Part shown: positions 2,523-33,930 of the stretch, one piece after another
Layout of the letters: each line of letters opens with the position of its first letter
How positions within the stretch are numbered: position 1 is the stretch's first letter
Assembly: GCA_031213475.1 (NCBI GenBank)
Contig: JARUPZ010000009.1
Span: forward strand, 1,590,001 to 1,654,000
Direction of reading: 5' to 3'
Source: Nereocystis luetkeana
Lineage: Eukaryota > Sar > Phaeophyceae > Laminariales > Laminariaceae
DNA length: 64,000 nucleotides
Program-made: the position numbers and the translations under genes
The notes under the pieces: model-generated
What the model was told of the DNA's origin: nothing
Seen by the model: only the letters and a program-made list of their open reading frames with translations
Database searches by the model: none

Positions 2523-2575
2523 AAAGTTTTCGTCCGCAGCCGGGTAGATCCTTACCTCACCCCCTCACCTGTTTT
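2523..2575 (-). pseudogene. Decayed copy of the adjacent dehydrogenase exon
   Basis: On the minus strand an ACAG is followed by a sequence encoding GEVRIYPAADENF and then a stop. This parallels GEVKIYPEADEKYTF in the functional exon at 2271-2389. The acceptor and the first 13 or so codons are recognisable; the rest is lost. It looks like the remnant of a tandem duplication that included the intron-exon border. Confidence 0.6.
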
Positions 2576-2763
2576 TGCGTTTTTTCGCGGCCTTACATTG
2601 TGCACTTAGTGCAATCATTTTAGTTTATGGACGAACGAACAGATTCACAGCTTCAAGACAGGTTGTATTTTTCCTTTCGACATCGTACAGCATGACCTCC
2701 TTCAACGTCGTCACTCATAAAACACCCCTTCCTAACGACGCCCATTTGTCATTTCCCTCTCAC

Positions 2764-2858
2764 CGAACAGAAGCACATGGTCGGAGCAGGGCGAGAAGAG
2801 CGCCTGGGTGGGGCTGCCGTCAACGTGCAACGTGCTGTACACCTGGCTGAGCTCGAAG
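2764..2858 (-). CDS. Sugar dehydrogenase-like gene, upstream exon
   Basis: Encodes FELSQVYSTLHVDGSPTQ then ALFSPCSDHVLLFG. This resembles the first blade of glucose/sorbosone dehydrogenases ('..gl..Pt.iafsPdgrllfvaekgG'). Minus-strand acceptor GCTGTCGCAG and donor CTGTTCG|GTGAGA. It starts in phase 2 and ends in phase 1; the split codon G|GC gives the Gly that begins GKGGEV in the next exon. The upstream, signal-peptide-bearing part of the gene is not resolved. Confidence 0.65.
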
Positions 2859-2984
2859 CTGCGACAGCGGAAACATCGAAGAAAAAAGACAGAGCAAAGC
2901 GAACGGAAAAAGGGTGAAAAAAAACCCTGGGCATCCAGCTGCCAACTTAGGCTTGCATGGGGATTGGATGGGATTTCCCTCCAT

Positions 2985-3050
2985 ATGTGCAACGTGCTGC
3001 ACGTTGCACACTTCCTGGCGGAGCTCACGCCGAGCTCAAACCTGAGACAA
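2985..3050 (-). pseudogene. Possible second decayed dehydrogenase exon copy
   Basis: On the minus strand GTTGTCTCAG is followed by a segment encoding FELGVSSA..., resembling the start of the exon at 2764-2858 (FELSQVYS). The shared words GAGCTC and CAACGTGC(A)ACGTGCTG lie in the same order in both. The reading frame is not maintained and no donor is seen. Confidence 0.4.
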
Positions 3051-3059
3051 CAAAACCAG

Positions 3060-8559: not shown

Positions 8560-11030
8560 CACAGCAGTATCCGCGCAAGCAAGCGGCGCCCGCTCAATGT
8601 GTTCGGGTGTTCAACGTACGCATGGGATACGTACTCTGCCGAGGAAGGTACTCGCGACGAAGGAGGAGGGGGTCGACAGAAGATGTCAAACTTAATTTGA
8701 TATTCGATGCCAGGTACTTCATATTTCAGATAGAGACGATACGTCCATCATCAGGCTTTCCATGTGGCCCGAGGCAGCACGCAGTACTCGCCGCAGTATC
8801 CGCGCAAGCAAGCAAGCGGTATCCGATCACATCGACGCTGTTTAGGGATACAACAAATTCGTGCGTTCTAGGTGTAGAGGTTGCTAGATACGAAGCATAG
8901 CTCGTGCTCTGCAGACGCCCGCTGGCTGCCCCATGCACTACAACACCAGAAAACGCCGGGAACGTAAAACGGAGATAACATGCAAAACTGTTCGTAAATT
9001 TAAGGACATTTAATTTGTTAAGTAGTGCGTTAATGTTTCTTACATTTATGGACATATTACATCGGCTTTTTCGGCCAAAACATCGTCCGTCGCAAAAACG
9101 TACATGTCACGATGTGTGTTGCGAGCGACGTCGGGACTTGAGGGATTAGGTTATAAACCTTTCGAAACTCAAGGACGATTACAGCATCGGCCATACGAAG
9201 GAGCATAACGAGGCATGCTGCTGGAGTAGGGGATAGGAGATGTGTCCGAAGTGCAACGAATGGTTATATATACTATATACCAGGCGTGAACAGTGGTGGT
9301 GGTACATGTACCTGCGCGTTTCCTGTCCGTTACTGTACTGCTGTAGACGCTTGATTAGAACACTCTTCGCCTTTGTGACCAGGTAAACATGCGTCCCGTT
9401 CGACTGAAACCTAAAAAGCGAAAACTGACGCGGTCTAATCAACCCTCTACTGCTGTACCAGGCACCATGTACATGCCGTAGGAAGAGCGCGTGACAGTAC
9501 AGCAGTACCTGGTACTCTGCAGCACAAGCATCACGATTCTGCGCGTGTGTGCCATACCCTTCCTCGTTGCGTCCGTTCCACTTCGGAAACCCCTCCTACC
9601 CCCGCAGCAGCCCGGGCTGCTTCTTCGTGCGGACGGCGCTGGGATCATCAACTGGTTTCGACACTTACATATTTCCCTCTGAACTCTGCGATCCGCCTAC
9701 GTGCTCATGTATGATACTGCAGTAGGGTATCTGATCTGACAGTGACTACGAGTCCTCGTACGACAAGATACTACAACAGCACACTCTACAACAAACTGAG
9801 CGCCCAAGGCGTGGCTGTGTTCTTCCTACGCACCCTTGTGCCGAGGATGTTTCGGCACACTTCCGTTTTTTCTCTTTCCTTCGCTCTCTCTATCTCTTGA
9901 TCGGTCTCGAAACTCCAAAATCTCGATCGTCCGATCGTCCGAAGTGCTCGAGACTACACCGTTCTTTGCTCGTATGATGCTCACCGGCGAACGACCGACC
10001 TGCAGTGTGTGCCTTTAACGTACTACAGTACGTACGTACACACGGTTGGGTACCTACCTGGCGATGGCAGAAGCTGAGGCTGGCTTCTACCCGGCCCGTC
10101 GTTGTCCTACCACACGGTCGCAGGGGTGTCCACAGAGCAGTCGGTGAGTGAGTGAGTGATTGCGACGAACGGGGAGAGTCGTATGGATGTATGGATCTCG
10201 TTGTCGAGGACGGCCGACAAATCGACAACGGAATATATGTACAAAAAAAAAAGGGAAAACCGAAAAATCCGTTTTACCAAGATATATCCCCGTTCCCCTC
10301 CCACAAAAACCATATTTTTTACGAGGAAACCCTTGCATGCCCACACCACGAAAACCAACTTCTTGTGCGTAAGGGTAGCGGGCAGCCGATACGCGCGCAA
10401 CAGAAGGATCGGAGGTCTGCGGAGCAAGCCGCCAAAGCTCATGTTTTCGGGGATGGTGGCCGTGATTTGTCCCGCGGGTGAGGAGAGCTTCTGTGCGATT
10501 AGCGTGCGATCCTTTAGGTAGAGAGAACAAACCTTCGCGAATTCGCAGTTCATGATATTTATATATCAACTATTTCTCGAAATATAGGGTCGTTTGGATT
10601 CAATATAAATATATAAATGATCGTTATATTTAGGTCCAAATCGGTACGACTTGACGGGCCAAGTTTGAAATTCATACTGGTACTGCTGGTACCTGGTACC
10701 TGGTATCTATTAATATTAATAGTAGGACAGGGCTGCTTGGTTGATCTGCTTGCTCTCTGAGTGTGCATGGGCGCCTGCGAGGCTCGTTGCGGCTGCGATC
10801 GATAATACCGGATATGTATGACGGTGGAGTGGGCAAGGGCCCACGAGAAGTATTTCATGAGTGGTGTTCCTTGTTCTGCGATGATGATCTGACGGATTCC
10901 AAATTTCGTCACTTTGTCCTCAAATTTAAGACCGTTTACGTATTTGCATTAAAATGTAAACGGGCGTTATATTTCCGAACAGGTATGTTGCCCTCTGTGC
11001 GTGCATCTGCACCAGCAAGCAGTACAGCAG
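8560..11030. other. Intronic stretch without a recognised gene
   Basis: No exon supported by homology pattern and splice sites. ORFs up to 160 codons occur but overlap each other on both strands and show no domain pattern. Confidence 0.45.
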
Positions 11031-11039
11031 TACGTAAGT

Positions 11040-11148
11040 ATTACGGGGGACCATAGTTAATAGGACCGACTGTTGTTAGTAAAAATGGCTAAATATATAG
11101 GTTTATATGTATACCATAGGTCCTATTAACTATGATCCCCAGTAATAG
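11040..11148. mobile_element. MITE family 1 copy (ACGGGGGACCATAGT ends)
   Basis: About 105 bp with terminal inverted repeats: left GGGGGACCATAGTTAATAGG, right CCTATTAACTATGATCCCC. Six further copies lie at 21001, 29763, 30203, 56822, 58108 and 61575. The size and lack of coding capacity indicate a MITE. Confidence 0.88.
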
Positions 11149-11149
11149 T

Positions 11150-12415
11150 GCCTGGGGAATGCAAGCGCTTCGTGTAGCGGGCGGTTCCGCCCGCTACGCT
11201 CGCCCGCTACTCTTGCTCACCAGGAAAAATGGAATGGAACAGACGGCCCAAACAATCAATTGAGTGTTAGGTGCAAACAGGCGAGTTGCAAATGCCAACT
11301 CCGTCCAGGAAAACAACCCGAACGCCGCATGCATGTACTTTACTTCCGTACATACCCTAGGTAGCTATTAATAGCGTCTCGCACTCATTTTCTGTTTTTG
11401 ATCATGAGAGTACCTAAGAGAAAGCACAGCACGCCGCAGCACCCCAAAAATGATGAAAAAAATGAAAGCGGAAATTTCAGAGAGAAAAAAAATCCCCGTC
11501 CCCTCTGATGTAATTAGTTTCCGCCCCGAATGGAACACCTTGTGCCCCCCCCCAAAAAAAAACGAGCAGCAGAGCTCTCAGCATCGTACGCTGCCCGCCC
11601 CTCTCGTGACCACCTCGCCACCGATTCGGTCCGGGTAAAGCTTTCCTCCCTCTCTGCCCCAGTGATCCCCTTCGCGCGCCTGGCGTGAAGCCCGGTGCTC
11701 ACCGTGGCTCTCGTTCGCGAGCTCGACAGTGTTGGTGCTCAGACTGCGATGCTCTCTCTGTCAAATTCGGCTTGGTCGCAAAAATAAGCACCGCTTGTTT
11801 TTTTTCCGCAATCCCAAACGACCCTTACAGACTCGTACATATTACTTCCAACCCCACACCAGGAGGCTAGGCAGAGCCCATTCGTAATTCCCTCGTGTCT
11901 CGAGGCACACGCGACGCCTAGCCACGAAAACGGCGACCGCGCTCCTTCCAACCCCACCTCCCAACCCCACCTCTACCCGCCAGCGCCCGCTGACACCCGC
12001 GACGGTGCGGGGCTCGCCCGCGGTGCCGTGGGTACACGCACGCACACAAAATGAAAAGAAGAAAAAAGGTAGGACAGGCTCTCGCCGGCAAGTAATAGAA
12101 GGAGGCGGTGTCCAAGTGGGAGCTCTGAGATGCCAGGGATGTACCAACCGAGTACGCTCGGCGAGAGATATATCTATAAAGTATGTTTATACATATATGA
12201 GTGCGCACACCAGTAATGTACGTGCTGCAGCCGTGTGTGCTCTTGGGATCGGGGTGCCAAGTGCCAAGCGGCAGCAGAGGGTGCATGCCTGTAGACTAAT
12301 AAAACACGCCGATTTATTCGTATTCGGTGTTTGGCCGATGAATGGCTATCTCCGGATATGTGGTGAGCCCCACTGCTGCTCTCTGTCTCTGCGACTGGCA
12401 GCTTGTGACTTGTGA
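11150..12415. other. Intronic stretch, nothing recognised
   Basis: Contains a short perfect hairpin near 11175-11205 (AGCGGGCGG...CCGCCCGCT) that recurs near 40815-40850. No exon recognised. Confidence 0.45.
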
Positions 12416-12417
12416 CC

Positions 12418-12768
12418 AGGGCTGCTGTTCACGGGTCATGACTCATCATCCGGCCCGCGGGTAGCGGGTAGGATTAGGAGGTTTTCAAGATATGACGGGT
12501 CGGGCCGGATCGGGTCTGGTCAGGGCGTGCTGGAAGTATCACGGATCAGGTCGGGTCGGGTCGGGCCGGGTCAGAAGGTTTTCCAAATTCTCACGGGTCG
12601 GGTTTATTCGTGTCGGGTCCGGAGGTTTTCGAAATCTCACTGTCGGGTCGGGTCGGGTCGGGTCGGGTCGGGCCGTTTGAGGAGGTTTTCACAATATCAC
12701 GGATCGGGTCGGGTCAGACGTCGACAACGCAATATTTCGTGGTCGGGTAGGCCCGACCCGACCCGTAT
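12418..12768. mobile_element. Foldback element with GGGTC arrays
   Basis: Starts CCAGGGCTGCTGTTCACGGGTC and ends in CCCGACCCGACCCG of opposite sense. Between them are several short (GGGTC)n arrays, each preceded by a spacer like AGGTTTTC.AAAT.TCAC. The same architecture is seen at 20495, 23680, 29352 and 48486. Confidence 0.7.
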
Positions 12769-12769
12769 C

Positions 12770-14500
12770 GTGTGTTGTAAGTTGTGTTGTGTGTTGTGTG
12801 TTGTATGTTGATGTTTGTTGTGTACCGAGTGTTGCGCGTTTTTTGGTGGTGTGTTTATGTTTTGTGTCACAGTTGTTTTCGGAGTAGTTGGTGTCTCTGC
12901 TGTTTGTGCCGTTGCTGTCGCTGTTGCTGTTGCTGTTGGTTTTTCAGGGGGGTTCACCATGGTTGAAAGTCACTTTGTACGATACGAGAAAAACGAATCC
13001 TAAGCCAATCAGAATCCATCAACCATTGAATAGCATATGCCCTTTTGTCTCGCACACCGTGTGCTTCAACCATAGTGTTTAATCAGAGGTGAACTCGATT
13101 TTGTTTTTTTTTGCGTGTTGCTGTTGCTGTTGCTGTTGTTGTCGCGGTTGTTGTTGCTTGTTGCTGCTGCTTGCTGTTGTTGTTGATGTTGCTGTTGTTG
13201 CTGTTGGTTGTATTGGTTTTGTTTTTGTTGGCGCAGGGATTGCTTCGCCGGCGGCCTCCGGCTGGGTGTCATCATTCGCCGCCGTACATACCCTGCTACA
13301 CCATCGATACAGAAATCGACCTACGTCCTTCCAACCGCGCGGTGCGTCTTTTCATACCATGTTGCTACTGTTGCTGTTACTGCTGGTGTTGCTGCTGCTA
13401 CTGCTGATATTGCTACAGCAATGCTACCACTGCTGCTACTACTGTTCCTGCTACAGCTACTGCTGCTACTTCTGCTGCTATCACTACTACTACTGTTATT
13501 GCTATTGCTGTGTCAGATGTTGGCGTCTCATACTCTTCATATTCTCGATGTTGTATGTTGTAACAGTATTGGAGCGTGTCAGGGACCCAATTGCATTGTC
13601 GAAGGGCAATGGCGCACAGAGAACACTTAGTCCTTTTTCCACTGCAGCTATTAATACCAGTAGAGTGTTGTACATAGGATAATTTTTTGTCTCAGAGTTC
13701 CTAAAGGGGCTATGGATCTACAAGTAGCATGTTCATTAGCATCATTAGCATGTTCATTAGAACTCTAAAAGCGTACCATGTGGCCATGTATCCCTGTCTT
13801 TTGCTGACACCAGATCCCACGTGTTACATAAGAGGTGTCCTACATTGCTTCTACGTAACGTTGTATTTCGCAATTATGTCAGCCTGTCTGGCCTTGGGAA
13901 CTCCTACAGTACAGTAGTTGATCAAAGCGAGATGGATTCGAATCATCGGCGAGCAAAGGCAACGGTCATGTCAATCTTCGCCCCCCCCCCCTCCTGCCCC
14001 CCCCCGCTCCCAGCCCCTGCCACCCTCCCCAGCCCATACACATGCCGTAAACAACACCGTGAAGACCCTGTGGCCCTTACACACCCCACGAACACCGCGA
14101 TGTTCACGCCGCAGAAAAAAACCCACCCCACTTATTTCTCTCTCCTCTGTCCTCGCCCCTCCAAGTAATTGGAAATCCGATCACAAAAACGCATGGAAAC
14201 CTTCGGGAACACCCGGTAGGGTCGCACGCGCTGCCTTAAATCCCGCCGCAGTAAAATAGTTGGAAACCCCCATCCCCACCCCCCTTCCACCTGTCCCCGT
14301 CCCCCCATCTTATCGCACACAATCGTACACACGGAAACCTTGCAAAACGCTCTTTTTGGGTTCGCAAGCACTGCCATCAACACCGCCGCTGAAAATCAGT
14401 TGGAAACCCCCATTCCCACCACCATGTCCCTGGTCCCCGCCCCTCCAACAAATTGCACAAAATCGCCATAACGCGTCGAAACCGCCGGAACTCTCTCTAG
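12770..14500. other. Intronic stretch rich in GTT/GCT triplets
   Basis: Contains GTT/TGTTG-rich sequence (12770-12950) and trinucleotide arrays at 13105-13230 and 13360-13515. These create long Leu/Cys or Gln ORFs that I regard as artefacts. There is a C-rich tract near 13980-14020. Confidence 0.6.
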
Positions 14501-21458: not shown

Positions 21459-22129
21459 GTCATTGGTCCTGTTTTTTTTTATTCATTTTTTTTAGATTTT
21501 TTTTTTCTTCTAGGCTGTTTCTTACGTCAAGCTGATTTGCTTCAGTTTTTTTTTTTTTTTTTTCAGCCAAGGAAATGTTGGTTTTGACCGGGAGCGCGAG
21601 CAAATCGGTCGTGCGCTTGGTGGAATGAGTCCGCCCCCGTGCTGTAACCCCTTTTTAAGGGATAGCAGCCAAGACAATGGTTGGTAACTCTTGAGTGTTA
21701 TCAATTGTCTACTGCAGGTGCAGCGTGAACGCCCGGCAGAACGAGCAGGGCCATGCTGCGCCCCATGCACCCATGCGGTACGATTCCTTGCACTGTATGT
21801 AACTCGGACACAAAATCTGTGTCGTCCCCCCCCTGCGGCCATGTAGTTGGGTCGGCGTCGGTTGGTAATGACACTATAAAACATGCCGCTCACTAGTTGA
21901 GCTATTAATAGACAACCAGGGTACTGCTTTGTTTATTCATTTTTTTGGCGGTCGGTCACAGCTGGTGGTCGGGTTAAATCGTTTGTGCGAGATCAAGAAC
22001 CTTTTCTCCGCACGAATAGGAATGATTGTATCACGTAGTGTTCAAGGTAAGGCACCCAAGAGGCAGTTACATGTTACTTCCATTGCTGTCTCTGGAATTG
22101 CCTGCACCGGAAATTAAATTAACTCATTG

Positions 22130-22365
22130 AAGCTGTCATCCATATGCAAGTCCGCCTCACGAGCGGTTCTTACCGTAGTAGGATGCAGCTCACCCTTCAT
22201 GCGACTCGCCAGACATCTCACGGCGCTTCGCGCTTGGTGCAAGCAATGTCTACCTGGTCGGTGAAAACTCGACATGCTCCGCCCCGGCATTGTAGGGATG
22301 CGAGGGCCTATGGTCATACGACTACGGCAATGCATGATATCGAGTACATCTCTTTTATCGAATCC
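22130..22365 (+). repeat. Dispersed repeat, CGGCGCTTCGCGCTTGGTG family
   Basis: Landmarks ATCTCACGGCGCTTCGCGCT, CCTGGTCGGTGAAAACTCGA, CCCCGGCATTGTAGGGATGC and CGACTACGGC.ATGCATGATA. Other copies: 24985-25175 (minus), 28868-29062, 37220-37430, 50985-51195; fragments at 31018-31050 and 31130-31168. Confidence 0.8.
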
Positions 22366-22870
22366 CCCTCCCCCCCCCGCGAAGCGCGCATCTGGTAAGG
22401 CACCCACGAGGCAGTTACATAGAAAACCCATTGCTGTCTCTGGAAGTGGCCACACCAGAAAATAAATCACTTAATTGACGCTGTCATCCATGTGCAAGAA
22501 AATCCGCCCCAAAAGCGGTTCTCAGTACGACGCATCGAGCGATCAGCCAGAAACTTCCATGATTCGTCTCAACTCACTACGAGTGTCAGGAGGAAAAATT
22601 GCGGTCCGCCGTTCGGACTACTTGAAAAAGAAAAACGCGACGCAGCCACGTTTCTGGCCGCCCGTTTCTGAGTCTTTTCCGGCCTTTTTTTGGGCCCGCG
22701 GTGGGGTCAATTAGTATTAGTAGGGTTTTATAGGCCTAGCGTGAGCATTTGCGTTGAGTTCTCGCCCGCTTACCTTGATCCCCACTGGTTCGGTGGAATA
22801 TATCAAGCTGAACAATCCATGATGGCTAAGCATACCGGGACATCGTACAATGTAAGAGCATCCTGTTTAT

Positions 22871-22978
22871 GACCCTTCTAGGGCAAAAAAACTGCAGGCC
22901 CGTCTTGGGGGACTATCCACTCAAATTTTGAGTAATTTTGTCCCCGACAACGGGACTGCAGGCGTAACGAAAGGTGTA
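22871..22978. mobile_element. MITE family 3 copy
   Basis: CTGCAGGCCCGTCTTGGGGG pairs imperfectly with CCCCGACAACGGGACTGCAG around a short AT-rich centre. Related to 15222-15319. Confidence 0.65.
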
Positions 22979-23679
22979 AGGCTGGAGTAGAGATGAAAAC
23001 CAGGTGAAATCGGCTTGTCGCGCGAAAACAACTTGTTGGATTCAGTGCAGGGTTGTGTTTTTTTCCGCAGCAAAAGATGAGATCATACCAGCGCGGTGTA
23101 AAAGACAACGTTTTGGGGCTTGTCGCGTGGTGATCTTAAGATGGGTACACCACCGTACGCTTTTGCGGGTCCATGGTGGGTCCTGATTACTACACGTAGC
23201 CCCTCGAAATAGGAGGTGCTTCCTACCCCGTTGTCCACGTTGTTTATCCTCCGGTGGATGGATAAAAATAAAGCTTGAGCTCCCAACATTTCCGTCCACG
23301 TTCAAATTTCGCGTGGTGTGTCAATTGAACCCATAGATCCCGTTGCAACAGCAGAGTAGGCTGCTGTTACCACTGGCGCTTGGGCACGTCGAAGTACAGA
23401 ATAATCTTACAATAGGCCGCGTTGTTCGCAGAACTCGTCCGCTCACCGCCGCGGAGGAGTCCACAAAAAACAAAGTCCGCTTCTCCAACGAAACTTTTTT
23501 TTTTTTAATATATATTTTGACGATTTTTCCATTTCCAGCATTTAGTGTACCATCGAAACGAATTCGAGTATACTTTCAAGTGAGGATTCCGAACGAGGGC
23601 GACACGTCCTGCGCCGTGTGAACATCACCAGTACAATTTTCGGTGCAGATGTAATACCGTACACCCCCTGCTTATTTTA

Positions 23680-23962
23680 TGACGCGAACCCGCGGGTCGG
23701 ATCAGGAAGGTTTCAAAATTTCACGGGTCGGGTCAGTTGGGGTGGGGTGGGGTGGGGTCGGGTCGGGTCGGGTCGGGTCAGGAAGGTTTCGAAATCTTAC
23801 GGGGCGGGCCGGGTCCGGTCGGGTCGGGTCGGGAAGGTTTCGAAATCTCACGGGCCGGGTCGGGTCCGGTCAGGTCGGGTCGGGAGGTTTTCAAATTATC
23901 ACGGATAGGGTCCGGTCACGGATACCCGACCCGACCCGACTTGATCCCGCGAGGTTTGACCC
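23680..23962. mobile_element. Foldback element with GGGTC arrays
   Basis: Four short GGGTC runs separated by AGGTTTC.AAAT.T.ACGG spacers, ending in CCCGACCCGACCCGAC of opposite sense. Confidence 0.7.
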
Positions 23963-23984
23963 TGATAAACCCTGCCTGTCACGA

Positions 23985-25950
23985 ATTGTGTGGATGATCT
24001 GTGTGATCCGTATGACACAGCTCTCGTGCACCTGGTTTTACCGGGTGGGTAGTCTATATGCTATAGTACGTATGCTACTACCGCTCTGGCTCTGGGGCAT
24101 GTGTTCACCGAGTGCGACCTGTTTGACATGCGGTGCTTGCACAACATTGCATAACGGCGAAATGTCCAACATCAAATCTATTGCGTAGTACGCACGATGG
24201 AAGTATTAATAGCACACACAGCTTGCAAAGATGAGCCTCGACGATTTTCTCGATCTCACAGCTGTTTTTTATATTTTTATTTCATGAATAATTATATATC
24301 ACACAGAGCTTGCATATATGACTTTCGATGAAATCCTCGATCTCGATAGCTGATGTTCGTGTCTAGTACATGTAAATCGTGATGTGTGCTACGCGTGAAT
24401 TCTCCGAGCAAGCCTAGAACATGGACCAAAACGCCTCTGAATTATCCTGCAACAAGGCACGGGTTGATCTCGGTTTGGTTCTCGATCATCTCCAACAGCT
24501 ACACTATTTTCCATCCTCTAGACCGGAGCTCATGCTCTCGTAGAAATAATTTTTTGTGAAGCCCAGTTTCGTGATGTACACCGACGTACACTAAAAGTAA
24601 CCTATGACATTTAGTCTGAGTTCCAATCAATCGCGTGTAACCGTCGGTGTACACTAAAATTAGCGCAAGGTACGCGTCCGACACTACAGCGGTAGTGTGT
24701 CGATTCTTCGAGTATGCAAGCCCAGAATACCAACCAGCACGCCTGTCTCATGATCTCTTGCAACACACCACGGAGTGCTCTCGGTTCGGTTTCCGGCCTC
24801 TGTACTTCAACAGCATCTGCTGTAAGTATCGGCCGGGCGGTTACCAAACCAGCTGTCTGTACTCAGCCGGATTTTTCTCTTCTCTTGGATGCATGCTGCG
24901 GCGCATAGGGCAGCATGGGGCGTACGAGAAAGCTGGTTTGATGACCGCCTGACACCCCGCTACATGTCCGTTTTCGAGACCCAAAAGGGGGGAGGGTGTA
25001 GTCGATATCATGCATGGCCGTAGTCGTACGACCATAGACCCTACTGTAGCATCCCTACAATGCCGGGACGGAGCACGTCGGGTTTTTACCCACCAGGCAG
25101 ACATTGCTCGCACCAAGCGCAAATAATCACCGTGAGGTGTTCGGCGAGTCGCATGAAGGGTGAGGTGCGGGGTACTCATCTGTTGCTTGGTCTAGTCATT
25201 TGACCGTCGACCGTGCGGAGTAAATCTGACGGGGAGGGGCTTATGAAACGCAAGTGAAAAACCCCCCCGCTAACTAAACAGTATGCTTTCGTAAAATCGT
25301 CCAGAAATCCCGCCCCACTGGTTTGTGTGTCATTGTCGCTACTGTGACCTTTTTAGGGTTGTGGTGTGGTTTCGCCTTTTCGTCGGAGTAGCGGATAATT
25401 TGTTTCAGGGCCCTCACTTGGTTATCGTATACCAGATACCCGGTACCCGGTAGGAGCTCTGTCTATACCCACCCACTGACCGACATTGAGAAATGTTGTA
25501 AGCCAGGGCCGATACACAATCAAGTGAGCTTACAAACAGCGAAACATGCAATACGCATCGGAATCACATGTATTGGGTAGTTTGTCACGTCCGTGGGAAA
25601 TGCTTGGGCTATACTATACCAGGTACAATACTACAATCAAGCGAAACCCCAATACCTGCAGTGGCACGGCTGCTATTGAGGTCGATGCACCCCCCTACCC
25701 GCTACCTAATCAACACCTCATCCTACATTATGGTTCAAGATACAGGGAGGTGCATGTTGTGTTTGCTTTTTTTTTCTCTGGATGCCTTGTTTCACGCGTC
25801 TACTTTACGTGGCCTGGACTTTCTGCTATTTCACCATGTTTTTGGTAATTGATTTTTCTTTTTATGCTCACGCTGCATAACAAAGGGACGGCAAATCGAA
25901 AACATAAACAGAGTTCGCCCCGAAAGCACGAGTTTTGCTTCCTTCAGTCT
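23985..25950. other. Intron, mostly unrecognised
   Basis: Holds a fragment of the CACACCTCGGACAG element (about 23985-24050) and a minus-strand copy of the CGGCGCTTCGCGCT repeat (24985-25175). No exon recognised. Confidence 0.5.
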
Positions 25951-25956
25951 TCCGCT

Positions 25957-26022
25957 CGTTTTGTTTTGAGGGACAGAAGTTTTGGCGACAGGATGGGAGA
26001 TTTTGCAGCCGCTGCAACTCAC
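25957..26022 (+). pseudogene. Partial copy 1 of the second phosphatase exon
   Basis: GTTTTGTTTTGAG followed by GGACAGAAGTTTTGGCGACAGG and GGGAGATTTTGCAGCCGCTGCA. It parallels the acceptor and first 45 bases of the functional exon at 27339 (TTTGCTTCAG, GGAAGAAGTTCGGGGACAGC, GGGAGATTGGCAGCTGCTGCA). The acceptor AG is retained as GAG; the frame is lost. Confidence 0.65.
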
Positions 26023-26039
26023 TGCTGTGACTAAGCACT

Positions 26040-26645
26040 CTCGACGGGAATGTAAGCACCGTTTGGACTCCGATGTGTATATCAAACGGAGCTTATATTA
26101 GACCTGTCATGAACGGTAATATAAGCACGCCGTTTGGACTCCGATATGAATGTCAAACGGAGCTGACCGGGAATATAACCACCGTCTGGACTCCGACATG
26201 AACATGAACTGGAGGTGACAGGGAGTATAAGCACCGTTTGGACTCCAATATATATATACCAGGTATATATTATATATATATCAAACGGAGGTTATATTAG
26301 ACCGGTCATAAACGGTAATATAAGCACCATTTGGACTCCGATATGAATATCAAACGGAGCTTACATTAGACCGTTCATGAACGGTAATATTAGCACCATT
26401 TTGACTCCGATACGAGTATCGAATGGAGCTTATCTTCCCGGTCATGGACGGTAATATAAGCAGCATTTGCACTCCGATATATCCCGATATGAATATCAAA
26501 CGGAGGTGACCAGAAAAGTTTAGCACCATTTGGACTTTTCGATATGTTCCGATAAGAATATCAGACGGAGGCGACCGGAATTTTTTAGCACCATTTGGAC
26601 TTCGATAGATTCCGATATGAACATCAAACGGGGCTTATACTCCCG
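26040..26645. repeat. Tandem minisatellite, TTTGGACTCCGATATGAAT units
   Basis: About nine diverged units of 60-70 bp. Each contains GTAATATAAGCACC, TTTGGACTCCGAT and ATCAAACGGAG. Lies between partial copies 1 and 2 of the phosphatase exon. Confidence 0.9.
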
Positions 26646-26730
26646 GTCAAAGCGGTTGCCAACTTCTATAGTACCTACTGAAACAGTCCTTGTACAGTCT
26701 ACCAATCCACGGCGCTCCTATGGTAAAATT

Positions 26731-26810
26731 TCTTCGCTTTGTTTCAGGGGATAGGGTTGGGGGACGGTGTGGGAGATGGGCAGCTGCCGGCTGCTGCTGC
26801 TGCTGCAAAT
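26731..26810 (+). pseudogene. Partial copy 2 of the second phosphatase exon
   Basis: Retains an intact acceptor (CGCTTTGTTTCAG), then GGGGATAGGGTTGGGGGACG and GTGGGAGATGGGCAGCTGCC, parallel to the start of the exon at 27339. It runs into a CTG microsatellite instead of the LHPSIP coding part. Confidence 0.65.
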
Positions 26811-26996
26811 TGCAGCAAGCTAGGCAACCAGTATCTAGTCAGCGTCGCATAGACAGCGAACATCCCAAGCATCCCGCGGTTCAGAGGGGGGAGAGTGTTA
26901 CAAGGATTACCCTGGACTGGGTAAATCGACCGATCTTTTACCCCTACAGGTCAGTACCCGGTAGGTAACACCTTCGCAACAGCCCTGCTGTTTGTA

Positions 26997-27072
26997 GCAT
27001 CCGATCCTTTTTTGTTGCATGGGGGAGATGATCGGAGACGGCGTGGGAGATTGGCAGCTGCTGCTGCTGCTG
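26997..27072 (+). pseudogene. Partial copy 3 of the second phosphatase exon
   Basis: GATGATCGGAGACGGCGTGG followed by GAGATTGGCAGCTGCTGCTG matches the first part of the exon at 27339. The acceptor is lost (GTTGCATGGGG) and the end is a CTG run. Confidence 0.65.
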
Positions 27073-27338
27073 TTGCGACCATCTACCACGAAGGTTGACG
27101 AGATAGGCCCACCCGAAACGTGCATGCCCCGCTCCTTCCCTTCCGGGGAGAAGCGAAGTCTCACACCATAAGGCAGGCACACCATAAGGCAGGCACACCA
27201 GAAGGCAGGCACACCATAAGGCCAGCCTTGCCACTAGCACGCAACATAATATCCGGTCGGCGACGTACAGAAAGCGAACTCTCACAGCCGTACTAAATGT
27301 GACAATCTCATCCTCGGTTACATCGTCGTTTGCTTCAG

Positions 27339-27487
27339 GGAAGAAGTTCGGGGACAGCTTGGGAGATTGGCAGCTGCTGCACCCCAGCATTCCGGCTGTG
27401 CTTAAGTCTTGGCACAATCGAGGCTACAAGGTCGCCATAATCTCCAACCAGCTCGGGGTGGGAAAGGGCAAGGTCGACAAAAGAACG
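27339..27487 (+). CDS. PNKP: PNKP phosphatase exon, DWQLLHP to GVGKGK
   Basis: Acceptor TTTGCTTCAG (phase 1) and donor ACG|GTGCGA (phase 0). Encodes KFGDSLGDWQLLHPSIP, then YKVAIISNQLGVGKGKVD. DW..L.P.IP is typical of PNKP. The S-N-Q in the strand 'vaIiSNQ.GvgkGK' is HAD motif II (Ser/Thr binding the phosphate) followed by the family-specific 'NQ.G..rGK' loop. Three partial copies of its 5' part precede it in the intron. Confidence 0.94.
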
Positions 27488-27769
27488 GTGCGATTTACTG
27501 CAGTTTATGATTTCCCATGCTTTATGTCTGTTGGTGTGTGTGTGTTTTTAACGCGTGTGCCTCTTGCGTCTGTTCGTTCGTTCGTTCGTTCGTTCGTTTT
27601 TTTTTTTTTAATGTGTTTGGTTTCACCTGCGTGTTATTTGTGATGCTTTGTGTGTTGCCTTCTCTTGGTTTGGTTTTGGTTTATTTTGTGGGTTCGGGGT
27701 AAGGTCGACAGGGGGCGTGCGTTTCATCAGTAGGTTGCTTTCGCCTTCGTACATCGATAGCTCGTTTCG

Positions 27770-28490
27770 ATCGCTCTACTCTACGCTGTTGGGTACGGAA
27801 GTCGAATGTTCGATCCAACCCCCCTACACACGCCGTTGGGTGCGCTTGTCGAATACCTGGTATGCGATTCGATCGCGCTATGCTTGTATTTGGAGGCGGA
27901 TATCGATTGTTTGTTCCACTCGATCGCTCTACGTCGTTGGATGCCGATACTGACTACTCGATTCAATCGCTCTGCGTTGTTGGATGTGGACATAGTATGT
28001 TCGATTCGATCGCTCTACGTACCTTGTTGGATGCGGATACTGACTAATCGATCTACATCGTTGGAGGACGACGCGGAATAGTCGATTCGATCGCTCCGCG
28101 TCCTGGGATGCGGATATCGAATGGTAAAATCGATCGCTCGTTCTTCATCCGTTGGAGGCGTGCATCGCTCCTTTGAATGCGTGACTCGAATATTCAATTC
28201 GAGCGCTCTACTTCGCTGGATGCGTGCATCACGTCGTCGGATGCGGATATCGACTACTCGATTCGATCGCTTTACTCTGTTGGGTGCGCGGGTACCGTCG
28301 CTAGATGCGGGTATCGAAGCTCCGATCGCTCTGCATCGTTGCATGCGGATATCGAATACGTGTGCGATTCGCTCTGCTCGGTTGGATGTGGCGATCGAAA
28401 ATTTCGATTCGATTTTTCGTCGTCGTGGGATGCGGATGCGTGCGTCGAACAGTCGACTCGATTGCCCGCACCCCGTTGGAATCGAGGAGC
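27770..28490. repeat. Tandem minisatellite, CGATCGCTCTACGTCGTTGGATGC units
   Basis: About a dozen diverged units of 50-60 bp in the PNKP intron. Landmarks TCGATTCGATCGCTCTAC, GTTGGATGCGGATATCGA. Confidence 0.9.
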
Positions 28491-28616
28491 CAATTTAGGA
28501 TCACCAACATCAGCAAGCGCAATAGCGACAGCAACAGCAACGACCACAACAACAGCAACCGAGTAACAAGAACCTCACCAACAACAACAATCCCGAATGT
28601 TTGCGTGTCTGTTCAG

Positions 28617-28703
28617 CTCAAGGCTAAGGTCCAGGCTGTGATCAAGGCGCTCGGAGTTCCTGTAGAGGCATGTCTGTCTTGCCAGGATGATTACTACAGG
28701 AAG
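28617..28703 (+). CDS. PNKP: PNKP phosphatase exon, KAKVQAVIKALGVPV
   Basis: Acceptor CTGTTCAG and donor AGGAAG|GTGAGA, both phase 0; 29 codons. Encodes LKAKVQAVIKALGVPVEACL and CQDDYYRK. It matches the PNKP cap-side helix ('fkaKveavlekLgvP') and the '..YRKP' element; the Lys of YRK is HAD motif III. The Pro of YRKP comes from the next exon. Confidence 0.93.
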
Positions 28704-28867
28704 GTGAGACGTGAAACGAAATATTAATGGTGGCGTTTTTTTTTCGGCCTTGCCGTCATTTTTGTTTTTTGTTTTGAAAAATATATACCTGGTATATTTT
28801 TGTTGTTGTTGTTGGTGAATTTTTTCATGATAGCTGGTACGATGTATTTTTTTTAGTCCCCCCCCTC

Positions 28868-29062
28868 CTCCATGCGACTCGCGAACACATTGCGGCACTT
28901 CGCGCTTGGTGGAAGCAATGTCTGCCTGGTCGGTGAAAACCCGACGTGCTCCGTCCCGGCATTGGAGGGATGCGAGGGTCTATGGCCTACGACTACGGCC
29001 ATCCATGACATCGAGGGCAACCCACCCCCCGGTCATACGACTACGACCATGCATGATACAAG
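28868..29062 (+). repeat. Dispersed repeat, CGGCGCTTCGCGCTTGGTG family
   Basis: Landmarks GGCACTTCGCGCTTGGTGGA, CCTGGTCGGTGAAAACCCGA and CGACTACGGCCAT.CATGA, as at 22130. Confidence 0.75.
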
Positions 29063-29159
29063 TATCCCCCCCCACCCCTCTTCCTCCCCCCCCCCCCCCC
29101 CCCCCCACTCGGCGATCCCCCCTCCGCGCATTAATGACCACTGTTTGCGACGGCCGTAG

Positions 29160-29297
29160 CCGCGCCCTGGTTGCTGGGAGCTGCTGTCCAAACCCAACAA
29201 CAATGACAGCGGCGAGGGGGGTTTCCAGGTGGTGAAGGAGGCGTGTCTCTACGTGGGAGACGCTGCCGGCAGGCCAAAGCAGGGGACCTATAAGAAG
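29160..29297 (+). CDS. PNKP: PNKP phosphatase exon with YVGDAAGRP
   Basis: Acceptor GACGGCCGTAG and donor AAGAAG|GTATGT, both phase 0; 46 codons. Begins PRPGCWELLSK (completing YRKP..G.W..L) and carries ACLYVGDAAGRPKQGTYKK. GDAAGR is HAD motif IV, with the Asp that coordinates magnesium; this exact form is diagnostic for DNA 3'-phosphatases. Confidence 0.94.
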
Positions 29298-29351
29298 GTA
29301 TGTTATGTACAGTACGTGTAACACCAGTTTTTTTAAAACTCAAATCGTTTA

Positions 29352-29735
29352 GAACCAGGGCTGTTTGCGGGTCAGGAGACCTTAAAAAATGCACGGGTCG
29401 GGTCGGGTCGGGTCGGGTCGGGTCGGGTCGGGTCGGGTCGGGTCGGGTCGGGTCGGGTCGGGTCGGGTCGGGTCGGGTCTGGTCTGGTCGGGTCGGGTCG
29501 GGTCGGGTCGGGTCGGGTCGGGTCGGGTCGGGTCGGGTCGGGTCGGGTCAGCAGGTGGTCGAATTCTCACGGGTCGGGTGGAGTGGGGTCGGGTCGGGTC
29601 GGGTCAACAGGTGTTCCAATTCTCACGGGTCGAGTCGGGTTGAATTGGGTCGAGTCGGGTCGGGTCGGGTCGGGTCGGGTTAGGTGATCCCATCCGACTC
29701 GGCTCGCGAGTTTTATCCGGACCCGTGAACAGCCT
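29352..29735. mobile_element. Foldback element with long GGGTC array
   Basis: Bounded by CCAGGGCTGTTTGCGGGTC at the left and GACCCGTGAACAGCCTTG at the right, which pair as terminal inverted repeats. Inside is an almost pure (GGGTC)n array of about 150 bp plus shorter arrays separated by TTCTCACGGGTCG spacers. Clearest example of the family in terms of its ends. Confidence 0.78.
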
Positions 29736-29762
29736 TGTTGAAAACAATGTGGATGTATTCCT

Positions 29763-29872
29763 ATTACGGGAAACCATGGTAAATAGGGCCAAATATTGTT
29801 CGTAAATATGGGAAAACATATAGATTTTTGTGAGTACCGTAGTTCCTATTTACTATGGTCCTCCGTAATAGT
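29763..29872. mobile_element. MITE family 1 copy
   Basis: ATTACGGGAAACCATGGTAA at the left pairs with TTTACTATGGTCCTCCGTAA at the right. Confidence 0.85.
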
Positions 29873-30202
29873 GAAGGGTGAATAGTTACGTACCCGTGTT
29901 CTTTACTGATAATATTTTGTTGAAGTCATTTGCTTCAGGCGTACAAATTGAAAACATATTGGCTCGGGCCAATGGACTTCGCGAGGACGCCGAAAGTGCG
30001 ATTTTGTGTAGGGGGCCTGGACCTGCCAGGAAAAAGAAAGAGGTATACCAGTAGGCGGGAGGAGGGGGGAGTAGGTGCACAGGTGTGCCCGCGTGGCAAA
30101 GCAGTAGTGAGCAGTACTTACATAGGAGAATGTGAAATACACAAGGAAAAGTTGGTGAGGAAAGTAGACGAATTTGGCTCGGAGATGTTTGATACACTTT
30201 TA

Positions 30203-30303
30203 CGCGGGACCATAGTTAATAGGACCTACGGTACACACAAAAACCTATATATTTACTTTTTTTTACCAACAATATTTGGTCCTATTTAGTATGATCCCCC
30301 GTA
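30203..30303. mobile_element. MITE family 1 copy
   Basis: ACGCGGGACCATAGTTAATA at the left pairs with TATTTAGTATGATCCCCCGT at the right. Confidence 0.85.
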
Positions 30304-30591
30304 CCAGGTAATAGATAGGAGCGAGAAAACGATCGCAATCCTAGGAGATAGATGGTGGCCACAGGCGGCGAAACAGCAGGGGGATAAGATTAGCAAAAAT
30401 GTTTTATGTATTATATGGAAACGACGCAGTGAGCGCCCAAATGTTGGAGATGTCTCTATTAGGAATAGGAACGGTGTTCCGTCTCGAAAGGGAAGCGTGG
30501 TCAATGGTCCAATGACTAAGGCAAGATGAGTACGTCCCGCCCCCCCCTTCCCACCCGGCCGCCTTTTTTTCCTCTGGAAATTATTTTCCAG

Positions 30592-30695
30592 GATTTTTCC
30601 GCGGGAGACCTGAAGCTGGCGCTGAACGCGGGCATACCGTTCCAGACCCCGGAGCAGTTTTTCCTGCGATCCAAGCAACCTCTCCATAAGAACCG
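30592..30695 (+). CDS. PNKP: PNKP phosphatase C-terminal exon, DFS to EQFFL
   Basis: Acceptor TTATTTTCCAG (phase 0) and donor CCG|GTGAGC (phase 2). Encodes DFSAGDLKLALNAGIPFQTP then EQFFLRSK. It matches the conserved 'kDfs..Dr.fA.N.glpF.TPEeFFl' that follows GDAAGR in PNKP. The split codon CG|A gives Arg at the junction. Confidence 0.94.
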
Positions 30696-30934
30696 GTGAG
30701 CAAGAAACATAGAAACAATCAGTACTATCACAAACAAAATGCCTGTTATGAAAATGTAAAAGAGCGCTCTAACCGATGAAACACACGTGCAAAAATAGTG
30801 ATGCAACTGTTTTTATACGTCTACGGTCACGGAGCGGCACCCTGGTGGGCGGTACCGAGCGTTGTTGTTTTTCAGATGGTGATATCTGTCATCATAATCC
30901 GAAAATAAAATATCCCCTCTGCACCTACCTCCCC

Positions 30935-31258
30935 CGCCATCTCTCCCCCCTTCCTCTCTCTCCCCTCCCCCCCCCCCTCCCACGTCTCCCCCCCCTTCCC
31001 CCACCTCCCACGTCTCCCCCCCCGACTACGGCCATGCATGGCATGAGTACCCCCCCCCTCCCCCCCTCTCCTCCCCCCCCCTCCCCCTTCCCCTCTCCTT
31101 CCCCACCCCTCATCTCCCTTCCCTCCCCCTCGGTCATACGGCTACGCCCATGCATGATATCGAGTACCCCCCCGCCCCTCCCCATCCTCCACCTCACCCC
31201 CCCCCCCTCCCCACCCCTTCCTACCCCCCACCCCTCCCCTTCCCACCCCCTTGCCCAA
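30935..31258. repeat. C-rich low-complexity tract
   Basis: C/T-rich sequence interrupted by two fragments of the CGACTACGGCCATGCATG repeat (31018-31050, 31130-31168). It directly precedes the kinase exon acceptor and may act as its polypyrimidine tract. Pro-rich ORFs over it are artefacts apart from their final, exonic part. Confidence 0.85.
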
Positions 31259-31263
31259 CCCAG

Positions 31264-31473
31264 ATCTTTGGCAGTCCTAGGTTTCGACCCATCTACCTTG
31301 CGCAGAGGCAGCTCTTCCCCATCAACATCAAACGCCTCTGACTCTCTGGAAACCTCTTTTGTTGGCGGTAGCAGTGGGAAGGGAGGAGGGGGGCTGGAGT
31401 TGGTGGTGCTGGTGGGGCCTCCTGCAGGGGGGAAGAGCAAGCTGTGCGGGGATAGGCTGGCGGGATACGCGAG
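31264..31473 (+). CDS. PNKP: PNKP kinase exon with the P-loop
   Basis: Acceptor CAACCCAG (phase 2) and donor GCGAG|GTACGT (phase 2). Encodes SLAVLGFDPSTLRRG, a Ser/Gly-rich linker, then LELVVLVGPPAGGKSKL. 'fdP.tl' marks the end of the phosphatase domain; GPPAGGKS is the Walker A motif (GxxxxGKS) of the DNA 5'-kinase, which binds ATP. Animal PNKPs usually have Thr after the Ser; here Lys follows, a mild deviation. Confidence 0.93.
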
Positions 31474-31489
31474 GTACGTCTGTGCACCG

Positions 31490-31735
31490 TATTGCCGTAT
31501 CACCCGGGTGATAAAATATAGCACACCCCCTGGGACGAAGTTCCAAGCTGAGTTTCTCCAAGCCCAGGACGGGGCACACAAAACGGAGATGGTGGCTTTG
31601 GAAATATCTACTTTTTTTTATCGTGTGGCGTTTTGACCTTCCCCACTGCCGAAAAAATCAGCCTCTAAATTCGTCCTAGGGTGGGTGTCATCTTATCACA
31701 CGTGATATCTTATCACACGTGATATCTTATCACAC
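31490..31735. mobile_element. MITE family 2 copy (ATCACCC..GGGTGATAA ends)
   Basis: Left end GTATCACCCGGGTGATAA then CACACCCCCTGGGACGAA. Right end TTCGTCCTAGGGTGGGTGTC then TTATCACACG. About 230 bp, non-coding. Other copies: 34185-34413, 54316-54545, 56180-56423; partial at 32070-32130. Confidence 0.75.
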
Positions 31736-32070
31736 GTGTTATCTTGTCACACGGGTTACCTTATTACATGTGTTATCTGATCACACATGTTATCTTATCA
31801 CACGTGTTATCTTATCAAACGTGTTATCTTACCACACGTGTTATCTTATCACACGTGTTATCTTATCACACTTGTTATATTATCACCCGGTGTGTTATAT
31901 TGTCACGTGTTATCTTATCGAACGTGTTATCTCATCACGCGTGTTATCTTACCGCACATGTTATCTTACCTCACGTGTTATCTTGCCACACATGTTATCT
32001 TATCGCGCATCTGATACTTTATCACACCTGCTATCTTACCACGCGTGCTTTATTACCACACGTGTTGTAC
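31690..32070. repeat. 17-18-bp tandem array, TTATCACACGTGTTATC
   Basis: About twenty units of CACACGTGTTATCTTAT, many with the palindrome CACGTG. The array sits at the right end of the MITE family 2 copy and repeats its terminal sequence. A second partial MITE end follows at 32070. Confidence 0.92.
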
Positions 32071-32357
32071 GGTAACACACCCGGTGATAATAAGGCAACA
32101 CACCCCCTACAGCAGGACGAATTTCCAATCCGACTTTCTTGAAAACGAGTACGAGTGGAGCGCAGACGCCGAGCGATGCATCTGCATGCAAACGTTTCGA
32201 CGTTGTCTGCCCTCCCCAAGCCACCGTATTTTTGCTGCGTGTGCCCTCCCAGTTTGGGAGTATATTGGCGTGCCCGCCTAATTTGGGAGTGAATTGGCTA
32301 TAGTATGAGACGCAAACCGGGGGGTTTGTTGTCTTTCGTGTGATATAGGGTATACAT

Positions 32358-32512
32358 GGTATATGCCTGTCTGTCTGTCTGTCTGTCTGTTTGTCTATGT
32401 CCAAATGTCTGTGTGTGATTTAGGGTATGTGCCTGTCTGCCTGTCTGTCTGCCCGTTTGTCTGTCTTGTCTGTGTCCAAATGTCTGTCTATCTATCTGTG
32501 TGTCTTGTGTTC
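32358..32512. repeat. (TGTC)n microsatellite
   Basis: CTGTCTGT runs interrupted by TTTGTCTATGTCCAAATGTC, a short second-order duplication. Confidence 0.88.
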
Positions 32513-32551
32513 CGTGGGGTTGTGTCTGTTCATCTCTGTGTGTGTACAGGT

Positions 32552-32745
32552 CACGCCGGTGGTCAAGTGGTTAACCTCGAATGCTACTATTAATATTAAC
32601 ATTAATTGCTACTAATAACACTAGCATTGATGGCGTTGATGTTACGAATTCGATTCTCCGTACAAGTATGGGGTCTTTGTTTCGGGTGATGAAAGACACA
32701 ATCTACCGAGAGCGCCTGCTGTAGTGTCGTTTCTCTCGAAATGAA
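32552..32745 (+). mobile_element. Diverged family 1 SINE head
   Basis: CGCCGGTGGTCAAGTGGTTAA followed by CCTCGAATGCTACT matches the tRNA-like head of the SINE at 8185. The B box region (CGAATTCGATTCTC) is separated by an insertion. Confidence 0.5.
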
Positions 32746-33102
32746 GGAGTACATGTTTTTTTTTCTCCGCAGTCTACGTTCTTCTGGTTCTGCTTCGTGT
32801 GTCTGATACTAAAGATGACATACAGAACATACATCGAGTAAACTACTGTACTTTTTTTCAACTGTTTTGTTTTCACATTTTTTTGTTTTCGCCTCGTTTA
32901 TCACACGGTTGACATTCAGTTGGTATTACTAATAGTACGAGTATATAGTTATTCTCCCACTACATATTGCTTTGTAGCCTGTCCTGTGACCATGGTTTTT
33001 TTAGCGATGAGTTATATGAGAACAGCAATAAAAGAGTTGACCATCTTTCTTGTTTGGTTTTTTCCCCATTGTTTCGTTTTTTGTTTCCGTTTATTTTGGT
33101 AG

Positions 33103-33205
33103 GGTAAACCAGGATGAGCTGTCGAGCCTGAGCCGCTGTCGACAGGTGGCCACTGCGCGACTGAAGGAGAGAAGCAGCGTTGTCATCGACGCCACAAACC
33201 CAGCG
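33103..33205 (+). CDS. PNKP: PNKP kinase exon with VIDATNP
   Basis: Acceptor TTTTGGTAG (phase 2) and donor CCAGCG|GTGAGA (phase 0). Encodes VNQDELSSLSRCRQVA, then KERSSVVIDATNPA. 'vN.D.l' carries the kinase catalytic Asp region and 'vviDaTNP' is the conserved strand of the DNA 5'-kinase (DNTNP in animals). The last 60 bases plus the donor are repeated five more times in the following intron. Confidence 0.93.
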
Positions 33206-33930
33206 GTGAGATGACATGATCCTAGTGTTGCTGCCAGTATACTGGAATATTACTGCCGCCAGTAGTACTGTTATGTTTTGGTGGGTGGCTACTGCGCGAC
33301 TGAAGGAGACAAGCAACGTTGTCATCGACGCCACAAACCCATGGGCGGGATTATAATTATACTGGTATACTGCTGCTCCCTGTATACTTGATTTCTGCCA
33401 GTATACTGGAATACTACTGCTGTCAGTAGTACTGCTGTTATAGTGGGTGCCTACTACGCGACTGAACGAAAAAAAAGCGTTGCTATCGACGCCATAAAGC
33501 CATCGGTGAGATTGCACACAGCTCGCTGGTGTGCTGTTGCTGCCAGTATACTGGAATGCTCCTGCTGTCAGTAGTACTGTAGTTATTCTTGGTGCCCACT
33601 GCGCGGCTGACGGAGAAAAGTTGTCATCGACGCCACAAACCCATCGGTGAGATTACAATATACTGGTGCAGTATGCTGTTGCTGCCACTACTGCTGTCAG
33701 TAGTACTGTTATACGTACTGGGTGGCTACTGCGCGGCTGAACGAGAACAAAACGTTGTCAACGTCGCCACCAACCCATCGGCGATATTCCAATATACTGG
33801 TATATACTATTTTATCAGTATTTTATCGGCCGCGAGATTATAGCATATACTACCTGTACCGTATTGCTGTAAGTGTGTGACTGCGGTGAGATGTGGGCAT
33901 TATTGTCAACACCACAAACCCATCGGGCGT
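33206..33930 (+). repeat. Exon-derived tandem repeat, 5 further DATNP copies
   Basis: Units of 130-160 bp each contain the 3' half of the preceding exon (GCGCGACTGAAGGAG, TGTCATCGACGCCACAAACCC), the donor region (CATCGGTGAGA in two copies) and intron sequence (CTGCCAGTATACTGGAATA, CAGTAGTACTG). Copies of the DATNP core are near 33327, 33487, 33629, 33765 and 33907. Divergence rises downstream; none has a recognisable acceptor, so all look non-coding. Confidence 0.88.

What the first reader, a model, noticed from the sequence alone, without database searches (positions are those of the whole stretch)
2523..33930. Exons are repeatedly duplicated into their own introns
At least six exons in two genes have decayed tandem copies beside them: BRCT exon (+3), nucleophile exon (+1), second phosphatase exon (+3), DATNP exon (+5), and two dehydrogenase exons (+1 each). 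Several copies include the splice site, so the duplicated unit crosses the exon-intron border. This suggests a local duplication process that enlarges introns using exon-edge sequence as seed, in a genome also rich in minisatellites.
Basis: partly seen in the sequence, partly recalled or inferred. Interest (0 to 1): 0.8.

Follow-up and report, generated by a model that had tools for sequence, protein, structure and literature searches.

The report
Decayed exon-edge copies in seaweed introns
A DNA-repair gene of a brown seaweed carries old, broken copies of several exon ends in the neighbouring introns; they are real, but in this gene exons are no more often copied than the intron DNA around them, so they look like by-products of ordinary local tandem duplication rather than of a process that starts at exon edges.

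Summary
The window is brown-algal and holds a 15-exon polynucleotide kinase/3'-phosphatase (PNKP) gene. The "dehydrogenase" and "BRCT" labels found no support, and a second dehydrogenase exon was not found. In each of the five families the similarity runs through one exon border, and the copies lie on that side.

The interpretation does not hold as stated. Exons are not preferred: 4 of 15 against 30-42% of random intron segments of the same lengths, and 4.4-6.4 expected under rotation. Local direct repeats are also common in 21 other genome stretches. Best explanation: indiscriminate local tandem duplication; units crossing one border leave the mature exon intact, so selection lets them stay and decay. 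The copies are old: at 8 of 13 testable codons a copy keeps the Undaria residue that the live exon has lost (null 1.7). Pseudogenic exons and border-crossing duplications are already published.

The parts
10441..38405 (+). PNKP (polynucleotide kinase 3'-phosphatase) gene, 15 exons E0-E14; exon ends set by eye from alignments and splice sites
   Evidence: tblastn with relatives P0026-P0030; splice sites; PNK3P in E6, 3.2e-07, and in 5 of 5 relatives
16454..16591 (+). E2 ('BRCT exon'), live exon
17041..17089 (+). E2 copy 1 (3' part of exon, donor lost)
17247..17305 (+). E2 copy 2; 17252-17299 is a 48-nt potential cassette exon with AG and GT in the needed phase
17352..17412 (+). E2 copy 3 with donor GTGCGT; indels against the exon
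21202..21314 (+). E5 nucleophile exon, live
21394..21473 (+). E5 copy including donor
27339..27487 (+). E6 second phosphatase exon, live
27022..27064 (+). E6 copy 1 (acceptor AG lost)
26738..26787 (+). E6 copy 2 (acceptor TTTCAG kept)
25966..26016 (+). E6 copy 3
33103..33205 (+). E11 DATNP exon, live
33284..33441 (+). E11 copy c2 (exon part, lost donor, intron part)
33446..33586 (+). E11 copy c3, frameshifted, donor kept
33591..33716 (+). E11 copy c4, frameshifted, donor kept
33721..33804 (+). E11 copy c5, frameshifted, donor lost
33906..33926 (+). E11 copy c6, marginal (score 27, best control 26)
2272..2391 (-). exon-like segment with AG and GT sites; protein unidentified
2527..2572 (-). copy of its 5' edge including acceptor AG
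18333..18901 (+). 191-bp x3 tandem array starting 6 nt inside the intron after E3; intron-only duplication

Best explanation
These are relics of ordinary local tandem duplication (units of roughly 30-200 bp, by slippage, unequal exchange or end-joining; which one is not shown) acting indiscriminately along the genome. Where a unit straddles one exon border, the extra copy lands in the intron on that side, while the body of the exon stays joined to one complete copy of the edge. The mature mRNA is unchanged and selection does not remove the event; units that disrupt the exon are lost. The intronic copy then decays, and sometimes the array is amplified further like a minisatellite. Shown here: the copies, their side, the border crossing, no excess over intron background in this gene, decay, and age from residues shared with a relative. 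Inferred: the molecular mechanism and the filter by selection.
For: Copies above all controls in direct orientation; the same five segments score only 20-27 against reverse-complement flanks. All five families cross a border and lie on its side: E2, E5, E11 donor side and downstream; E6 and the minus-strand segment acceptor side and upstream in the gene. 4 of 15 exons versus 29.8-42.0% of 600 random intron segments. 250 rotations: means 4.43-6.44 against 4 observed. Exon tiles 3 of 29 versus 33% of 416 intron tiles. Direct:inverted 67:14 under 1 kb, 63:45 beyond. 21 genome stretches: 12.6% direct versus 3.1% inverted of 714 tiles. An intron-only array of the same size class sits at 18333-18901. 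One of 7 exon-like segments in other genes has a 32-nt border-crossing duplication. In the exon part, E11 copies c3, c4 and c5 of c2-c5 have 1, 5 and 1 gap columns against the exon.
Against: The exon part of E11 copies is more alike between intronic copies (0.80-0.89 for c2-c4) than their intron part (0.69-0.75), which plain neutral decay does not predict; conversion from the exon, indel-prone intron sequence or misalignment could explain it. Local-repeat tiles are somewhat rarer beyond 1 kb from an exon (25% of 104) than within 1 kb (32-37%), which the seeding idea would also predict. An array starts 6 nt after the E3 donor and another gene has a donor-site duplication. Only one gene was tested well; elsewhere 7 segments.
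Confidence: 0.8

Rival explanations
1. Exon-edge seeding: duplication starts preferentially at exon-intron borders and enlarges introns with exon-edge sequence.
For: All five copy families include a border; one further border duplication in another gene; a 191-bp array starts 6 nt after the E3 donor; fewer local repeats beyond 1 kb from exons (25% against 32-37%).
Against: No excess of exons over intron segments; exon base coverage 162 of 2034 (8.0%) versus intron 3657 of 23198 (15.8%); no gradient within 1 kb of exons. Border inclusion is expected from selection alone.
Confidence: 0.1
2. Some copies are working alternative exons (tandem exon duplication under selection).
For: E2 copy 2 (17252-17299) has an acceptor, donor GTGCGT, 48 nt, no stop, phase 0 and encodes GILSKHPLKHTTSAVK. 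A lax scan also allows E2 copy 3 from another AG (17341-17406, 66 nt).
Against: 10 of 12 PNKP copies have no AG-to-border-donor segment of the right length and phase even in the lax scan, in which chance AG-GT pairs are common. Five relatives' proteins, read by eye, show no repeated segment there. No RNA data held.
Confidence: 0.07
3. Transposon or introner-like insertion: the repeats are dispersed elements that happen to resemble exons.
For: The window is rich in dispersed repeats; a SINE-like element lies 8 nt after the E2 donor and a MITE-like one about 12 nt after the E10 donor.
Against: The exon copies lie within about 1.5 kb of their own exon; distant window segments do not match as well.
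Confidence: 0.02
4. Assembly artefact (mis-joined repeats).
For: None specific.
Against: Copies differ from the exon by 8-29% over aligned bases; a related alga's protein fragment shows E6-like copies in the same intron, by a small margin over controls.
Confidence: 0.01

Closest known systems
Pseudogenic exons (decaying exon copies), Morais and Harrison 2009, PMC2718932 (abstract and passages read)
   Same: Decayed copies of exons near their parent exon within the gene; frameshifts; some alternatively spliced.
   Different: There in 0.4-1.0% of mammalian genes, found at protein level; here partial exon edges with the splice site, found at DNA level, 12 copies in one brown-algal gene.
Tandem genomic duplication across an intron-exon boundary, potato RdRp, Ma et al. 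2016, PMC4974935 (abstract read)
   Same: The duplicated unit crosses the intron-exon border and carries splice signals.
   Different: There it created a new intron; here the extra copy stays in the existing intron and the exon is unchanged.
Intron gain by tandem duplication in Drosophila, PMC2891723 (passages read)
   Same: Local tandem duplication including exonic sequence and splice-like sites.
   Different: There duplications within coding sequence give new introns; none seen here.
Exonize 'intronic' and 'inter-boundary' exon duplications, PMC12343006 (passages read)
   Same: Same class of event; the paper says more genes have partial, inter-boundary and intronic events than full-exon duplications.
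   Different: I saw no brown alga and no test against intron background in the passages read.
Tandem LRR exons of brown-algal ROCO genes, PMC11378527 (passages read)
   Same: Tandem exon repetition in brown algae.
   Different: There whole 72-bp coding exons are kept and used; here partial copies.

Membership tests
Pseudogenic exon | Copy of an exon in the milieu of its own gene | tested here: met
   12 copies of 4 PNKP exons above all 300 controls, two marginally
Pseudogenic exon | Coding ability lost by frameshift or premature stop | tested here: inconclusive
   Frame broken in E11 c3, c4, c5 and E2 copy 3; not broken over the aligned part in E11 c2 and E2 copies 1 and 2, which are partial; E5 and E6 copies not settled
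Pseudogenic exon | Substitution pattern of decaying sequence (Ka/Ks) | not tested
   No Ka/Ks computed; divergence 8-29% and lost splice sites fit decay
Border-crossing tandem duplication | Direct local repeat whose unit spans an exon-intron border | tested here: met
Border-crossing tandem duplication with intron gain | New intron created | tested here: not met
   Relatives' proteins align to single copies of each exon
Mutually exclusive or cassette tandem exons | Copy has acceptor, border donor, right length and phase, open frame | tested here: inconclusive
   Met for E2 copy 2, laxly for E2 copy 3; not for 10 of 12 PNKP copies
Mutually exclusive or cassette tandem exons | Copy present in mRNA | not testable with these tools
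   No RNA data held
Exon-edge-seeded duplication | Exons hit more than intron sequence | tested here: not met
   (one gene)
Minisatellite | Tandem array of short units, several copies | tested here: met
   E11 family: units spaced 139, 161, 141 and 134. Not met for the E5 and minus-strand families, which have one copy each

The most novel reading that the evidence does not exclude
In this brown alga local tandem duplication is frequent enough that a sizeable share of exons (tens of percent) carry intronic relics. The relics form a readable fossil record of earlier coding states and a steady supply of incipient exons; E2 copy 2 is such an exon, already complete and in frame.
Probability: 0.2. 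Interest if true: 0.6.

Novelty: new member of a known kind. Interest (0 to 1): 0.3.

Why it matters
It shows that a striking-looking link between exons and intron growth can arise with no preference for exons, once local duplication is common and selection spares border-crossing events. If common genome-wide, intronic relics that keep residues lost from the live exon (8 of 13 testable codons here) would let exon history be read inside one genome, and would give a measurable rate for the first step of exon birth.

Tried and rejected
Dehydrogenase gene: Pfam on two ORFs, on read-through frames of 1-9990 of both strands, a PDB sequence search (nothing better than E 0.98) and a homolog search of part of 1320-2519 minus gave nothing. 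I could not name the protein. BRCT label: no Pfam match in the E1 and E3 pieces or in 5 of 5 relatives; E2 alone was not scanned. Other genes in 38.4-48.4 kb: no Pfam match at 0.01; 48.4-64 kb and the read-through frames of 10-38 kb were not scanned. Rfam on 7-40 kb and ARAGORN on the window: none. Viral contigs: no related locus. Coding-potential scan of 210 kb: by eye mostly transposon-like or doubtful ORFs; 10 of the listed segments went to Pfam, 4 matched (WW, EF-hand, ubiquitin, and Mem_trans weakly at 0.028).

The confidence of the main explanation went from 0.82 to 0.8 and that of the seeding rival from 0.08 to 0.1, because the lower repeat rate beyond 1 kb from exons had been left out. 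E2 was one base short (16455 for 16454), and so out of frame; corrected. The script printed no hits, for the shuffled queries too, so its tblastn step did not work; replaced. One hit in a C-rich flank (L015 third exon, score 34; best control 32, reverse complement 33) was not counted.

Full report
What the sequence is. The window is from a brown alga. A query of joined conceptual exon pieces matched Ectocarpus, Hapterophycus and Sphacelaria proteins and, in a longer form, Undaria pinnatifida (P0026, E 2.6e-137), Ectocarpus, Ascophyllum, Pylaiella and Scytosiphon proteins (the Undaria record is named only Undpi1 there, and the species name is recalled). tblastn of these relatives places a polynucleotide kinase/3'-phosphatase gene on the + strand, 15 exons E0-E14 at 10441-38405 (part of that output was cut), with AG and GT sites (exon ends set by eye). 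PNK3P passes its cut-off in 5 of 5 relatives; AAA_33 passes in 4 of 5 and is below it in P0026, whose C-terminus is short; none has a BRCT match. Unmasked exons sum to 2034 bases and unmasked introns to 23198.

Are the copies there? Yes. With exon sequence alone, 5 of 16 segments tested (E2, E5, E6, E11 and the minus-strand segment 2272-2391) beat all 200 distant controls; against reverse-complement flanks they score 20-27. Two copies are marginal (33906-33926 and 17247-17305). The hits listed for E3 are the intron-only 191-bp array. The sixth claimed exon was not found.

Geometry. Similarity runs through one border in each family: donor side for E2, E5 and E11, whose copies lie downstream; acceptor side for E6 and the minus-strand segment, whose copies lie upstream in the gene. 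E2 copy 1 by itself stops 4 nt short of the border without gaps. This is what a tandem duplication with one breakpoint in the exon and one in the intron leaves behind. Splice sites in copies are a mixture: E11 donors kept in c3 and c4, lost in c2, c5 and c6; E6 acceptor kept in the copy at 26738 and lost in the one at 27022.

Is it more than intron background? No. Random intron segments of exon length (600) show a local direct copy in 42.0, 37.2, 32.5 and 29.8% at thresholds 30, 34, 40 and 44, against 4 of 15 exons (27%) at each. Inverted-orientation rates for the same segments were 20.5, 13.5, 8.0 and 6.7%, so part of the direct rate is dispersed or low-complexity sequence; 1 of 15 exons (E4, score 40) passed thresholds 30 to 40 in inverted orientation. 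Rotating the exon map 250 times gives means of 6.44 to 4.43 exons with a copy; 95 to 67% of rotations reach the observed 4. Sixty-base tiles at threshold 30: 3 of 29 exon tiles versus 33% of 416 intron tiles. By distance to the nearest exon edge the intron rates are 36, 37, 32, 37 and, beyond 1 kb, 25%. By blastn, 15.8% of unmasked intron bases, 8.0% of exon bases and 6.3% of bases outside the gene lie in local direct repeats.

Is the process general? In 21 stretches of 10 kb from the same assembly (SINE-like elements of the window recur at about 93-94%), 12.6% of 714 tiles have a local direct match at threshold 36 and 3.1% an inverted one; the window has 21.5% and 3.7% of 214. The window is thus above its genome's sampled average. 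In 7 exons or exon-like segments of 3 other genes (4 with some Pfam support, one of them weak) none has an exon-body copy. One (L008 2699-2779) has a 32-nt tandem duplication of its donor site including the last two exon bases. The whole genome could not be searched: the genome search did not answer in 17 tries.

Age. At codons where the live exon differs from Undaria, 15 of 38 copy cells show the Undaria residue, 10 the exon's and 13 neither. A null that mutates the live exon at the observed divergence gives 1.8 on average and at most 7 in 5000 trials; by distinct codon it is 8 of 13 against 1.7. Examples: NPS in four of five DATNP copies where the exon has NPA, and valine in two of three E6 copies where the exon has leucine. 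So these copies were probably made before those exon substitutions. Copies within an array are not independent, and Undaria need not be ancestral at each site. A protein fragment from another alga (P0004) has two 17-residue repeats just upstream of its E6; they resemble the window's copy at 27017-27073 (score 63; 210 controls, maximum 59, mean 34.7), a small margin.

Potential exon. E2 copy 2 (17252-17299) has AG, GTGCGT, 48 nt and no stop in phase 0. In a lax scan for any AG within about 30 nt and the border donor, 2 of 12 PNKP copies (E2 copies 2 and 3) give a segment of the right length and phase; chance AG-GT pairs are common in that scan.

Mechanism. Tandem duplication is supported by orientation, nearness and unit structure. 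The filter by selection is inferred: if one border is crossed, the exon body remains next to a full edge and the mRNA is unchanged. Whether slippage, unequal exchange or end-joining makes the units is unknown. Unexplained: between intronic E11 copies c2-c4 the exon part is more alike (0.80-0.89) than the intron part (0.69-0.75).

Known background. Decaying exon copies (PMC2718932), border-crossing tandem duplication (PMC4974935, PMC2891723), intronic exon duplications (PMC12343006) and tandem exons in brown-algal ROCO genes (PMC11378527) are published; what I read of each is stated in Closest known systems. Searches for exon duplication and for intron length with tandem repeats in brown algae and for relic or minisatellite forms listed no title describing this gene; listings only, and the library holds open-licence papers only.

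Verdict. The interpretation that exon edges seed the duplications is not borne out in this gene. The finding is a clear, dense example of a known kind.

Noticed in passing
17252-17299: E2 copy 2 is a complete potential cassette exon: AG acceptor, GTGCGT donor, 48 nt, phase 0, no stop.
   Followed up: partly
8180-8515 and 16599-16935: Two 97%-identical SINE-like elements (box-B-like GGTTCGAGCC, recalled motif); further copies at about 93-94% in L006, L007, L012. One starts 8 nt after the E2 donor.
   Followed up: partly
31486-32066: A MITE-like repeat starts about 12 nt after the E10 donor (relatives at 34180-34408, 54425-54553, 56176-56408), and a 17-bp x22 array next to it appears, by eye, to be built from its end: arrays may grow from element ends as well as exon edges.
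   Followed up: no
18333-18901: 191-bp x3 array (pairs 96-98% alike) begins 6 nt into the intron after E3: a recent intron-only tandem duplication.
   Followed up: no
33141-33804: Exon part of intronic E11 copies c2-c4 is more alike than their intron part even between copies; possible conversion from the live exon.
   Followed up: partly
L008 2778-2841: Tandem 32-nt duplication of a splice donor in another gene of the same genome.
   Followed up: yes
L001 1-10000: The first 10 kb of contig C1 has 56% of tiles with local direct repeats, against at most 24% in the other 20 stretches; it may be a chromosome end.
   Followed up: no
2018-2195 and relatives at 7719, 20245, 36241, 38952, 55659, 59967: Dispersed family with AGATCATAC-type units.
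   Followed up: no
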